The notes below the pieces were generated by a model. That model was not told the origin of the DNA. It did no database searches and worked only from the letters and a program-made list of their open reading frames with translations. A program made the translations under genes and the position numbers. This document shows positions 57,610 to 62,793 of a DNA stretch of 64,000 nucleotides, in pieces (position 1 is the stretch's first letter; every line of letters starts with the position of its first letter). This DNA is from Leptodactylus fallax (lineage: Eukaryota > Chordata > Amphibia > Anura > Leptodactylidae), in contig CAMRHE010000352.1 of NCBI GenBank assembly GCA_947044405.1, positions 1,083,501-1,147,500 of the forward strand, read 5' to 3'.

Positions 57610-58034
57610 CGTAAGTATGTGAGCCAGAGGGCGCTGTTGAGTGACCCAGGCCATACCAGAAAAGGCTCTCAGCCACGCCTTTGGGTGGTGGCGTGTAACT
57701 CCAGAGGGCTGGAGTATCCTGCACAGAGCAGGAAATGGTGGACCCAACTGGACAGATAGACGGTCTGTGCCAGCAGGGCTGAGGTCCACCGGAGACTCTT
57801 TGCTAGAGCTGAGCAAGAGTCAGGCTAGTGAGGGGCTCTATAAGTGAGTTAGGGCCCTAACGGCGGCCTAGGTTTTGTTTGTTGTTTTGTTATGTTGCCC
57901 TTAAGCTGTAATAAAGCCACTTTGTTTTAAATTGGCACCGTCTGAACGCTGTCTCACCGGCGCCCAGTATCACGAACCACCGCTATTGGGACCAGGAAAA
58001 GCCACCATTTGAGTCTAAATTCCCCAAGCTGTCA
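57610..58034 (+). repeat. 5' LTR (425 bp)
   Basis: It begins CGTAAGTATGTGAGCC (the right copy has TGTAAG, so the first T has mutated) and ends AGCTGTCA. A TATAAG lies at about 57839 and AATAAA at 57910-57915, giving a plausible U3-R-U5 layout. By eye about seven positions differ from the 3' LTR, roughly 98% identity, which indicates a recent insertion. Confidence 0.95.
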
Positions 58035-58038
58035 CATA

Positions 58039-58056
58039 TGGTGGAGAATGCGGGCA
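58039..58056 (+). other. Primer binding site candidate
   Basis: TGGTGGAGAATGCGGGCA starts four bases after the 5' LTR. TGG is expected opposite the tRNA CCA end. I cannot name the tRNA. Confidence 0.5.
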
Positions 58057-58175
58057 TAAAGAGATCCACACAAGTCCTGGAAGACAAGTGGTTTGTGATT
58101 GCAATACTGCAAAGTGTGCATTGTGGCCTACAGCTGGAAGAAATCTGTGATTTCAACTGAAGAAACCCAGGAGGG

Positions 58176-58181
58176 GTGAGT
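58176..58181 (+). promoter_or_regulatory. Possible splice donor in the leader
   Basis: GGG|GTGAGT lies in the untranslated leader, 420 bases before the start codon. It resembles a consensus donor. No matching acceptor was identified. Confidence 0.25.
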
Positions 58182-58333
58182 GAATTGCAACATAGCAAGG
58201 TGTTTGTAAAACTCTGGAAAAGGAATCCAGGGAACGGACTTTGTTTATACTGTGGCACAGAAGTCTGTGAAGCGTTTTGCTGATGGCAAGAAAATTAGCA
58301 ATGTGTATAGAAGCTGGATATTGCAAACAAGTG

Positions 58334-60075: not shown

Positions 60076-60423
60076 AGGAAAAGTTGCAAAAGGAGCTAGA
60101 AGCTACAACTCAACGGTTTGAGGAGAAGGTTGCTGCTTATGACAAACTTGAGAAGATGAAAATTAGACTGCAGCAGGAACTAGAAGATGTAGGTGTAGAT
60201 CTTGATCATCAACGTCGGATGGTGTTAAATTTGGAAAGGAAGCAGAAAAAGTTTGATCAGCTGCTTGGTGAAGAGAAGACTCTTTCTGCTAGATATGCAG
60301 AAGAACGTGACCGTGCTGAAGCAGAGGCCATTGAATTGAAGGCCGAGTTAAAGAGGCTCAACAAGCAACTGTGCACTGAAATGGAGGATTTGGTTAGCTC
60401 CAAGGATGAAGTTGAGAAAAACC
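59656..60423 (+). other. Myosin II heavy-chain rod segment (captured)
   Basis: About 250 residues of clear homology to the non-muscle myosin II rod. In the host gene this region is split over several exons, whereas here it is continuous, which indicates an mRNA origin. An internal deletion of roughly 18-20 residues lies near 60335. Which paralogue (MYH9, MYH10 or another) cannot be settled by eye; the DMKKK-MEDS...GFLDS area looks most like MYH9. Confidence 0.9.
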
Positions 60424-60926
60424 TGGAATCTGTGCAGATATTGTATGAGAACAAAGCTAATGCTTATGAGATGCTGGAAAAGGCCGAGAGAGAATTGGAC
60501 CTCCAGATAGAAGACATGAGGATTCAGTTTGAGGGAAACCTGTCTAATTTATCTGCTGAGATTGTAGATCTAAAAATGCTTGTTGCTAAATTAAAGGTGC
60601 AAGTGAACAAGCAGGAGGAAATCAAGAAACAGCTGGAGTTTCAGATGGATCAAGTGAAGCGTGAATCAGAAATAAAGTTGGAAGAGCGCACTTCTCAGAT
60701 TGAACAGTTAAAAACCGAAGTGGAATCTAAAAAAGAAGAATTGGATCGATTGCAGCAGTCTTTATCCAATACGGAACAGTCGGCATCTGCACTATCTTCA
60801 AAGCCGGCAACACTAGAAGATGAGAGAGACTCGCTGCAGAGCCTGTTAACCTCTAAAGAATCAGAGCTGTTATCCCTGAAAAATGTGATTCAAGAAATAG
60901 TCTTTATTCAACCAAGAGCAAGATAA
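60033..60926 (+). CDS. Captured-gene ORF, part 2: myosin II rod continued
   Basis: The second frame carries the continuation of the rod: EEKVAAYDKLEKMKIRLQQE, VDLDHQRRMVLNLERKQKKF, DQLLGEEKTLSARYAEERDR and NKQLCTEMEDLVSSKDEVEK, all characteristic of MYH9/MYH10-class tails. Relative to those proteins about 18-20 residues seem to be missing after AERDRAEAEA. Similarity weakens beyond about 60430 and further coiled coil of unknown origin follows (NKQEEIKKQLEFQMDQVKRE, SLSNTEQSASALSS). The frame is lost near 60897-60900. The true protein presumably continued directly from part 1, so the ATG here is not a real start. Confidence 0.9.
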   Translation: MEDSIGFLDSVEELKEKLQKELEATTQRFEEKVAAYDKLEKMKIRLQQELEDVGVDLDHQRRMVLNLERKQKKFDQLLGEEKTLSARYAEERDRAEAEAIELKAELKRLNKQLCTEMEDLVSSKDEVEKNLESVQILYENKANAYEMLEKAERELDLQIEDMRIQFEGNLSNLSAEIVDLKMLVAKLKVQVNKQEEIKKQLEFQMDQVKRESEIKLEERTSQIEQLKTEVESKKEELDRLQQSLSNTEQSASALSSKPATLEDERDSLQSLLTSKESELLSLKNVIQEIVFIQPRAR

Positions 60927-60952
60927 GAGAGCCACTGAGATACGAGACTTGA

Positions 60953-62518
60953 ATGAAAGACTTGACAAAAAGTCTGCAGATGATGTTGGAGGATCAATCC
61001 AATATAATTCAGGGAACAGTGGGGGAAGCAGAAAATATTATCCAGGATGCTGACCTGACAAATATTAGAATAACATTGCAGAATATCCTAGAATTAGGAG
61101 GCATAGTGAATAAAGAGATGGCATCTACATCTGCTGCCACAGAAGATGTCAGGAAGATTGAGGAAGTTCTGCAAGTTGCAATAGTAAAAACTGAGATGGA
61201 GGCTGTGCAGAAAAATGTGGCAGTGAAGAAAGTTCCGGAACTGGAATCAGAGATTTGTGCGCTACAGAAGGTTTTAGAATTAGAGAAAGCTGCCAGCATA
61301 GAGGCAGAGAAAGCAGAGACATTAAGTCAGCCAGAACATGTAACCAAAAAGCATCTGGGTACTGACAGTAAAAACTGTGATGTTGAAAACTTGGTATCCC
61401 AGTCCTCCGATGTTAGCACAGGGAATGAGAATAACTTGAAGAATGTTGAGATGACGATGTCACCAGCTCCTGTACTGTCAGAAAGGAGTTGGCACGAAAA
61501 TTCTTGTAATCTATCACAGCCCCGCAACATGCCTCCAGGAAGTTATGCGTATGAGAAAGAGGAAGTAAGACTAGAGTATGGAAGTGTTTCTACTGCTGCC
61601 GTACAGGTGTGGAAGCATTATACAGAAACCATTCCAATATATGATGTGGCAGTTGTTAAAGACATACCAGAAAATGTAGTTCAGCGTGAGCCATTTTGTA
61701 AGGGTGTACTGTATGGCCCTTGTGCAGAAGGAGAAGATATTGCAGTACAGAGCTTGTGTATCTCAAACAAAGAGGAGAGCAAGCAGCCTATGTCTCCTAA
61801 ACTTCTAAGCCGTGATAGTGATGGCAAAGTTTGCTTTGAGATGAAGGTTACAGAAAAGATACCCGTGAAATATTCATACTCTAAAGACATTGATGTGCAT
61901 GAAGTACGTGTTAGTTGGTATCTGGGCTCCTGTGGATTCGTCATAGGAGAAGATGAAGATTCTTGCGGCTATTCACTAGATGAATCGAGGTCATGCAATG
62001 GGATGGCTGAAGAGTACGGCGAGAAATGTGATGAAAATGATGTGATCCCTTGTATGGCGAATTTTGAAGGTAATGAAGGAGAACTTGCCTTTGTACGGAA
62101 TGGCCAGGATCTTGGCGTAGCATTTAAAGTGCTGAAAAAACGGAAAACTCGATTTAGCGGAATTTGGAAGAAGAGACCACCAGATTGGGACTTTAAAGTG
62201 ATGAGAAAACGGAGAACTCGACGGAGCAGTATTTGGAAGAAAATACCGCCAGATTGGGACTTCTGGAGAGACACTGGACAGGCATACTTGGTTGAAAAGG
62301 GACTTCGTCATAGGATGTCTCGTCCCATTGTAGCTCACCCCATGGGTAGTGAGCTGAGGGGGAGGGTATGTAAGTATGTGAGCCAGAGGGCGCTGTTGAG
62401 CGACCCAGGCCATACCAGAAAAGGCTCTCAGCCACGCCTTTGGGTGGTGGCGTGTAACTCCAGAGGGCTGGAGTATCCTGCACAGAGCAGGAAATGGTGG
62501 ACCCAACTGGACAGATAG
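60953..62518 (+). CDS. Captured-gene ORF, part 3: linker, hnRNP U-type SPRY segment and basic repeats
   Basis: A third frame, entered after a further one-base shift in the A5 run near 60971. It holds more coiled coil (to about 61320), a linker of unknown origin (PPGSYAYEKEEVRLEYGSVS), then from 61823 GKVCFEMKVTEKIPVKYSYS, KDIDVHEVRVSWYLG, YGEKCDENDVIPCMANFE and RNGQDLGVAFKV, the SPRY domain of hnRNP U. The SPRY segment stops short of the last strands. It is followed by two copies of a basic 23-residue unit with IWKK and PPDWD, and a tail that reads through the polypurine tract and 150 bases into the 3' LTR. The hnRNP U SAP, NTPase and RGG parts are absent. Confidence 0.9.
   Translation: MKDLTKSLQMMLEDQSNIIQGTVGEAENIIQDADLTNIRITLQNILELGGIVNKEMASTSAATEDVRKIEEVLQVAIVKTEMEAVQKNVAVKKVPELESEICALQKVLELEKAASIEAEKAETLSQPEHVTKKHLGTDSKNCDVENLVSQSSDVSTGNENNLKNVEMTMSPAPVLSERSWHENSCNLSQPRNMPPGSYAYEKEEVRLEYGSVSTAAVQVWKHYTETIPIYDVAVVKDIPENVVQREPFCKGVLYGPCAEGEDIAVQSLCISNKEESKQPMSPKLLSRDSDGKVCFEMKVTEKIPVKYSYSKDIDVHEVRVSWYLGSCGFVIGEDEDSCGYSLDESRSCNGMAEEYGEKCDENDVIPCMANFEGNEGELAFVRNGQDLGVAFKVLKKRKTRFSGIWKKRPPDWDFKVMRKRRTRRSSIWKKIPPDWDFWRDTGQAYLVEKGLRHRMSRPIVAHPMGSELRGRVCKYVSQRALLSDPGHTRKGSQPRLWVVACNSRGLEYPAQSRKWWTQLDR
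61823..62131 (+). other. hnRNP U-type SPRY domain segment (captured, C-terminally truncated)
   Basis: About 103 residues with strong similarity to the SPRY domain of hnRNP U, including the stretches FEMKVTEKIPV, DIDVHEVR, YGEKCDENDVI and NGQDLGVAF. Cysteines are unusually frequent (CGFVIGEDEDSCGYS, SCNGM, EKCDEND, PCMAN). The final strands of a normal SPRY fold are missing, replaced by a duplicated basic unit. Confidence 0.92.
62123..62260 (+). repeat. 69-bp in-frame tandem duplication
   Basis: TTTAAAGTGCTGAAAAAACG at 62123 and TTTAAAGTGATGAGAAAACG at 62192 start two 69-bp units encoding 23 residues each (FKV...KR.TR..(S)(G/S)IWKK.PPDWD). The first three residues of unit 1 are also the last of the SPRY homology. 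Confidence 0.93.
62356..62366 (+). other. Polypurine tract
   Basis: GAGGGGGAGGG followed by TA lies immediately before the 3' LTR, where plus-strand DNA synthesis of an LTR element is primed. It is also part of the open reading frame. Confidence 0.88.
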
Positions 62519-62793
62519 ACGGTCTGTGCCAGCAGGGCTGAGGTCCACCGGAGACTCTTTGCTAGAGCTGAGCAAGAGTCAGGCTAGTGAGAGGCTCTAT
62601 AAGTGAGTTAGGGCCCTAACTGCGGCCTAGGTTTCGTTTGTTGTTTTGTTATGTTGCCCTTAAGCTGTAATAAAGCCACTTTGTTTTAAATTGGCACCGT
62701 CTGAACGCTGTCTCACCGGCGCCCAGTACCACGAACCACCGCTGTTGGGACCAGGAAAAGCCACCATTTGAGTCTAAATTCCCCAAGCTGTCA
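62369..62793 (+). repeat. 3' LTR (425 bp)
   Basis: It begins TGTAAGTATGTGAGCC and ends AGCTGTCA, giving the canonical TG...CA. AATAAA lies near 62669. The end of the captured ORF (to 62518) lies inside it. Confidence 0.95.

What the first reader, a model, noticed from the sequence alone, without database searches (positions are those of the whole stretch)
57610..62793. LTR retroelement whose interior is captured host coding sequence instead of gag-pol
Seen: matched 425-bp LTRs, polypurine tract, primer-site candidate, and a single long coding region with a myosin II rod segment followed by an hnRNP U SPRY segment. No retroviral or Ty3/BEL motif is visible in the interior. Known: LTR elements can transduce host mRNA (oncogenic retroviruses, maize Bs1). 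Inferred: this is a non-autonomous family fusing pieces of at least two unrelated host genes into a chimeric protein, mobilised by a partner element with the same LTRs. I know of no described element with this content.
Basis: partly seen in the sequence, partly recalled or inferred. Interest (0 to 1): 0.96.

Follow-up and report, generated by a model that had tools for sequence, protein, structure and literature searches.

The report
Jumping element built from host genes
In this frog genome a family of LTR jumping elements, seen at 98 places that share its Bucky ball piece, carries no recognisable viral genes but one long reading frame stitched from pieces of at least four host genes, and because copies stayed free of stop codons while they multiplied, the patchwork protein likely helps each element spread itself.

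Summary
Window 57610-62795 is an LTR element (LTRs 98.6% identical, 4-bp duplication ATTG, tRNA-type primer site, polypurine tract) in which no gag, pol or env family was found. Its coding region is a patchwork: an N-terminal segment of unknown source, non-muscle myosin II rod, HIP1/HIP1R, a second myosin piece, Bucky ball/Velo1 residues 125-287, part of the hnRNP U SPRY, and a basic tail. It is a family: 98 distinct loci hold the Bucky ball piece; identical 4-bp duplications flank 28 of 32 testable insertions. Sister lineages without Bucky ball show the join site before capture, with short shared sequence at both joins, as template switching predicts. In 40 copies, inherited stops are rare (4; about 35 expected without selection), while private stops (32) match post-insertion decay (about 32); yet most residues drift neutrally. 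I infer selection acting in cis on the protein or on its translation, perhaps a home-made Gag-like protein, with reverse transcriptase and integrase from a partner that I did not find. Closest precedent: maize Bs1. New variant of a known kind.

The parts
57606..57609 (.). left target-site duplication ATTG
57610..58036 (+). 5' LTR (first base C here, T in the ten other copies)
58039..58057 (+). primer-binding site TGGTGGAGAATGCGGGCAT (tRNA-Ala by recall)
   Evidence: LTR end plus primer site found at 200 genome sites with up to 2 mismatches, reversed-pattern control 0; second variant 409 sites, control 0
58037..58599 (+). leader, with an 83-bp tandem duplication (58330-58412 / 58415-58497, K=0.050)
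58600..60075 (+). open piece 1 (491 aa), ATG in context ACCATGG
58600..59649 (+). N-terminal segment (~350 aa) of unknown source; heptad signal only from about residue 246; residues 131-350 are the one stretch with clear residue-level constraint among copies
59653..60419 (+). non-muscle myosin II rod (like human MYH9 about 1249-1510, with a gap after ~1472); crosses a frameshift at an A-run near 60.03 kb
60033..60926 (+). open piece 2 (297 aa)
60591..60836 (+). HIP1-family clathrin-binding coiled coil
   Evidence: PF16515 5.7e-14, 8.3e-15; PDB 2no2
60953..62518 (+). open piece 3 (521 aa), runs through the polypurine tract into the 3' LTR
61091..61180 (+). start of HIP1R-type THATCH region (weak, E 0.0037)
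61142..61315 (+). second class II myosin rod piece (like residues 1088-1145 of smooth muscle myosin)
61328..61816 (+). Bucky ball/Velo1 piece, residues ~125-287
61820..62137 (+). hnRNP U piece, residues ~281-386 (truncated SPRY)
62123..62260 (+). 69-bp tandem duplication (K=0.18) encoding basic 23-aa repeats; tail net charge +16 over 76 aa
62356..62366 (+). polypurine tract
   Evidence: tract plus LTR start at 1907 genome sites with up to 2 mismatches, reversed-pattern control 0
62369..62795 (+). 3' LTR
62796..62799 (.). right target-site duplication ATTG

Best explanation
This is one copy of a multi-copy LTR retroelement family without recognisable viral genes, whose single reading frame is a patchwork of pieces from at least four host genes, likely taken from spliced mRNAs by template switching during reverse transcription. 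Shown: element anatomy, copy number above chance, target duplications, host origin of four pieces, Bucky ball-free and Bucky ball-bearing forms with microhomology at both joins, absence of inherited stops. Inferred: the mRNAs entered particles with the element RNA and the reverse transcriptase jumped between them; reverse transcriptase, integrase and particle come in trans from an unidentified autonomous element; the chimeric protein, or its translation, helps mainly the RNA that encodes it (cis preference), because copies with a stop rarely left descendants although many sister copies could have supplied the protein. The most concrete version is a Gag- or ORF1p-like role: helical, coiled-coil-rich stretches for self-association and a basic tail that would bind RNA.
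For: Family: LTR search 40 full-length matches scored of 4156 candidates; chimera 40 of 40 scored places plus 58 other places, none in common; 43 copies fetched. Insertions: 32 copies with both LTRs, K 0.0024-0.030, median 0.0119, identical 4-bp duplications 28 of 32. Capture: host Bucky ball is a separate gene, 93% identical to that of L. fuscus over residues 47-679; element piece differs 9.2% at DNA level on average over 41 copies; both Bucky ball and SPRY pieces group with Leptodactylus, support 94/78 and 93/77. hnRNP U stretches without introns, up to residues 171-522, elsewhere; 3 of 3 fetched lie in this family. Joins: the Bucky ball-free forms L070 and L071 have 27 nt where L069 has 486 nt of Bucky ball, sharing AAG at the left and TGATGGTG at the right. 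Frame: 4 inherited stop columns against about 35 expected without selection, 32 private against about 32 expected from LTR age, 40 copies (arithmetic in 128). Residues 131-350 more conserved than every one of 120 neutral simulations; tail 5 of 120.
Against: Over the whole frame pN/pS 0.677 does not differ from neutral on the same tree (0.712; 19 of 120 simulations as low), and the Bucky ball piece looks unconstrained (113 of 120; host-versus-element dN/dS 1.22), so most residues may not matter. With eight regions tested the tail result is not significant. A looser count gave 45 stops in 32 copies against 30 expected from LTR age (9 of them in one copy). Selection may act on length or translation, not on the protein. 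Heptad signal is absent in residues 1-245. No expression data. No partner found. The source of the N-terminal 350 aa is unknown; it could be a relic of the element's own protein. That Bucky ball-free forms are ancestral is inferred.
Confidence: 0.9

Rival explanations
1. Passenger model: the family spreads by its LTRs, primer site and packaging signal alone, and the long frame is selected only as an untroubled translation track (avoiding nonsense-mediated decay or keeping ribosomes on the RNA), so the protein itself does nothing.
For: Residues drift near neutrally overall; host-invariant sites are lost, 12 of 63 in the Bucky ball piece and 8 of 46 in the SPRY piece; SPRY is truncated; internal deletions are common.
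Against: Residues 131-350 are more conserved than all 120 neutral simulations; a shorter RNA would serve a mere passenger better.
Confidence: 0.35
2. Helper-dependent defective retrovirus: the family arose like acute transforming retroviruses, a viral gag-pol-env genome replaced by host sequence and carried by an infectious helper.
For: LTR, primer site, 4-bp duplications (4 bp being usual in gammaretroviruses is recalled); multi-gene capture is known in oncogenic retroviruses (recalled).
Against: No gag remnant found; long germ-line life in several LTR lineages (LTRs 76-99% alike); no helper found.
Confidence: 0.15
3. A host chimeric gene or processed pseudogene that fell between two LTRs of an ordinary element.
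For: Host-like coding content without introns.
Against: The same interior lies between LTRs in many insertions with different target duplications.
Confidence: 0.01

Closest known systems
Maize Bs1 (transducing LTR retroelement; passages of the review PMC13317346)
   Same: LTR element with segments of three different host genes, none full length; a hybrid reading frame by multiple transductions is the title of one of its references.
   Different: Animal host; at least four host genes, other genes; 98 or more loci and several architectures here; before/after forms of one capture; stop purging measured. Bs1's own papers were not read (PMC2899935 not held).
Crocodilian ERVs with captured KIT-ligand or nectin3 mRNA (PMC4299795; passages, section 15)
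   Same: Vertebrate LTR elements that captured host mRNA and kept its frame through proliferation.
   Different: There one gene per lineage beside viral genes (KIT-ligand without loss of a viral domain, nectin3 in place of env), with purifying selection; here no viral gene was found and the captured pieces are fused.
Acute transforming retroviruses with multi-gene fusions (recalled)
   Same: Host mRNA pieces joined in frame, replication in trans.
   Different: Usually keep part of gag; exogenous and short-lived; here a germ-line family.
TRIM/LARD-type non-autonomous LTR elements (recalled; TRIM paper PMC4717578 seen in a listing only)
   Same: LTR ends moved in trans, no pol.
   Different: They lack a long conserved frame.

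Membership tests
LTR retroelement | paired LTRs with TG...CA ends | tested here: met
   424 columns, 98.6%; TG...CA in most copies, window carries C at the first base and TA for CA at the last two bases of its 3' LTR
LTR retroelement | target-site duplication, different at each insertion | tested here: met
   28 of 32 identical 4-bp pairs; two of the other four (L048, L051) become identical if the boundary is shifted by one base, by eye
LTR retroelement | primer site behind the 5' LTR and polypurine tract before the 3' LTR | tested here: met
   tRNA identity recalled
Autonomous LTR retrotransposon or ERV | gag and pol | tested here: not met
   window interior; other copies align to it over most of their interior, extra stretches not scanned except one listed
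Host-gene-transducing LTR element (Bs1 type) | pieces of unrelated host genes, intron-free, inside the element | tested here: met
   myosin II, HIP1 family, Bucky ball, hnRNP U; absence of introns judged from continuous protein matches; Bucky ball piece lies in one open stretch of the host gene and says nothing on splicing
Host-gene-transducing LTR element (Bs1 type) | moved in trans by an autonomous element | tested here: inconclusive
   no partner among 16 sampled primer-site loci or 18 paired spans
Processed pseudogene | single retrocopy with poly-A and LINE-type duplication | tested here: not met
   LTR-bounded with 4-bp duplications, many loci
Gag/ORF1p-like protein | self-association and RNA binding | not testable with these tools
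   only predicted: heptad signal in residues 246-784 (8 of the 11 overlapping windows p<=0.013), tail +16 over 76 aa

The most novel reading that the evidence does not exclude
A retroelement lineage rebuilt its own structural protein out of host parts: coiled-coil segments of cytoskeletal genes for assembly and a basic tail for RNA, plus a piece of the germ-plasm organiser Bucky ball, taken up from oocyte mRNA and acting in cis, so that the element is a self-assembled Gag-like replicator that keeps collecting and trimming host mRNA modules, borrowing only enzymes from others.
Probability: 0.3. Interest if true: 0.95.

Novelty: new variant of a known kind. Interest (0 to 1): 0.86.

Why it matters
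Host-gene capture by LTR elements in animals is known mainly from single genes or from defective tumour viruses. Here a genome holds many copies of a multi-gene chimera in several stages: without Bucky ball, with Bucky ball and a long hnRNP U piece, and with a shortened one. That makes the order and the joins of template switching directly readable, and the pattern of stops (purged before insertion, neutral after) makes testable whether a pol-less element can live by a host-derived protein that works in cis. It would show a route from host exons to a new selfish gene inside a mobile element. In my nine literature searches (open-licence PMC only) the listings showed no such animal element.

Tried and rejected
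Processed pseudogene between LTRs: rejected. Host constraint on the captured domains: rejected, 12 of 63 and 8 of 46 host-invariant sites changed, against 0-2 in six host species each. Raw dN/dS between copies (0.636 pooled) first looked like purifying selection; simulation showed that the same method gives 0.57-0.78 under neutrality, so it was replaced by a simulation on the copies' own tree. Change in conservative direction and heptad core versus other positions in the myosin piece (12 of 64 against 45 of 161 changed): inconclusive. Source of the N-terminal segment: no hit at lengths 270-859 aa, none in PDB below E 0.15, only sub-threshold Pfam hits. Middle stretch of open piece 2: no hit at 163-520 aa. 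Viral contigs: LTR word and two open pieces gave nothing, uninformative for a frog. Rfam and tRNA scans of the window: none. Partner search. Absolute dating was not attempted; no rate was measured.

Caveats on counts: the genome search scores only the best candidates, so 40, 58 and 58 are lower bounds; the 1907 3'-end sites, 200 and 409 primer-site matches are pattern counts, not checked one by one. The 43 fetched copies were chosen by LTR or Bucky ball-SPRY likeness to the window, not by state of the frame. The stop test used 40 of 44 copies (those with more than 600 of 1246 aligned codons).
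Full report
Observation. The two LTRs (57610-58036, 62369-62795) differ at 6 of 424 aligned positions, are flanked by ATTG on both sides, and enclose a primer site and a polypurine tract. The interior holds three overlapping or adjacent open pieces on the + strand. Pfam, PDB and protein searches identify a non-muscle myosin II rod, a HIP1-family coiled coil with a weak HIP1R THATCH start, a second myosin piece, Bucky ball/Velo1 residues 125-287 and hnRNP U residues 281-386. 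No retroviral or Ty3 family was found in it. The first ~350 residues match nothing.

Surroundings. The element stands in + orientation near an exon-like ORF of Protein kinase C-binding protein 1 (PF12064, 2.9e-17; that this is ZMYND8 is recalled) on the - strand, so it is probably an intronic, antisense insertion. The window also holds Tc1/mariner-type transposase remains.

Family. The window is G000:C352:1083501-1147500 of a 2.5-Gb assembly. The LTR gave 41 matches of which 40 are near full length. A probe of the Bucky ball-SPRY join gave 40 of 40 scored matches at 91-100%; the Bucky ball protein of L. fuscus gave its host gene plus 58 further places, none shared, hence 98 loci. I fetched 43 copies. 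With the window, 32 of 44 have two measurable LTRs: K 0.0024 to 0.030, median 0.0119; 28 of 32 have identical 4-bp flanks, many in AT repeats. LTR identity to the window's ranges from 76% to 99%, so several LTR lineages carry the chimera. Nine of 44 copies have an uninterrupted ORF of at least 1000 aa. Pattern counts suggest a larger family: 200 and 409 matches to two primer-site variants and 1907 to polypurine tract plus LTR start, reversed-pattern controls 0 in each.

Origin of the pieces. The genome's own Bucky ball gene is 93% identical to that of L. fuscus over residues 47-679, so the host is a Leptodactylus or close to it. Bucky ball and SPRY pieces both fall next to Leptodactylus in protein trees, with moderate support (94/78, 93/77; SPRY row is a long branch). 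The element's Bucky ball piece differs from the host's at 9.2% of bases (mean of 41 copies, dN/dS 1.22), whereas LTR pairs differ by a median of 1.2%: capture is far older than these insertions. The element changed 12 of 63 sites invariant in 26 host Bucky balls and 8 of 46 in hnRNP U.

How capture worked. hnRNP U stretches without introns occur at 58 scored places, many ending at residue 383-387, some reaching from 171 to 522. Three were read: L071 has hnRNP U from 181 far into the ATPase part, L070 has 181-384, both without Bucky ball; L069 has Bucky ball 124-288 joined to hnRNP U 181-383; the window has 281-386. All three end in a relative of the basic tail. In L070 and L071 the site where Bucky ball sits in L069 holds 27 other nucleotides; L069 has 486 nt of Bucky ball instead. 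The left join shares AAG and the right join TGATGGTG between element and host Bucky ball. The window's shorter hnRNP U piece fits a later deletion between ATGGTAAAG and ATGGCAAAG. This is what template switching at microhomology predicts (mechanism reviewed in PMC5408686, passages seen). That the Bucky ball-free forms came first is inferred.

Selection. Window codons (1243) hold no stop; neutral change at 0.10 per base would give about 14. Among 40 copies, 36 codon columns hold a stop: 32 private, 4 shared. Neutral expectation on the copies' tree is about 35 shared and 98 private; scaling terminal branches (0.0202) to LTR age (0.0066) gives about 32 private. So frames were open until insertion and decayed afterwards. 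A looser count gave 45 stops in 32 copies against 30 from LTR age and 171 if unselected. At residue level the whole frame is not different from neutral (0.677 against 0.712, 19 of 120 simulations as low); residues 131-350 are conserved (0.512 against 0.685, 0 of 120), the tail perhaps (5 of 120), Bucky ball not (113 of 120). Because other copies could supply the protein in trans, purging of stops copy by copy points to action in cis; this step is inference.

Partner. Sixteen primer-site loci were read: 15 continue into this family's leader and frame, one (L057) into what looks like an inverted LTR end. Of 32 listed primer sites on contigs covered by the 3'-end list, 18 pair with a listed 3' end, at 2.9-4.8 kb. 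No long element was seen, but the lists are partial.

Comparison. It works like maize Bs1 (three host genes in one LTR element; PMC13317346, passages) and, as capture, like crocodilian ERVs (PMC4299795). Bucky ball's N-terminal BUVE/prion-like part (zebrafish aa 23-136; PMC6219760, passages) is mostly outside the captured stretch, so a germ-plasm targeting role is speculative; that the mRNA is an oocyte mRNA (PMC5080839, passages) fits capture in the female germ line.

Verdict. The finding is real; new variant of a known kind, highly interesting because of copy number, multiple architectures and the stop pattern.

Noticed in passing
genome places, e.g. G000:C165:1769092-1770141, C197:1757179-1758225, C481:173481-174416: Long intron-less hnRNP U stretches (residues 171-522 and similar); three other such places belong to the element family, these were not read and may be longer captures or processed copies.
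   Followed up: partly
L062 (G000:C4:4410420-4411620): Internally deleted relative: N-terminal 37 residues joined to the myosin rod; it keeps myosin residues that the window copy lacks.
   Followed up: no
L057 (G000:C17:700516-701716): Primer site followed by what reads like an inverted LTR end; perhaps a failed or self-primed reverse-transcription product.
   Followed up: no
L011 1384-2517: 1.1-kb insert with an ORF that resembles a GIY-YIG/Penelope-type element by motif (recalled), inside one copy.
   Followed up: no
window 21964-22608 and 53750-54247, - strand: ORFs that look like exons of ZMYND8 (the second has PF12064; the first is recalled only), so the window is mostly one host gene.
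   Followed up: partly
window 582-1007, 3240-4001, 34014-34436, 38011-39150: Tc1/mariner-type transposase remains (Pfam HTH_Tnp_Tc3_2, HTH_SB, DDE_3).
   Followed up: partly
window 15994-16803 and 30135-30854, + strand: Open stretches of 270 and 240 aa with no convincing Pfam match, perhaps pieces of another mobile element.
   Followed up: no
copies listed: Many insertions sit in (AT)n repeats, suggesting a target preference.
   Followed up: no
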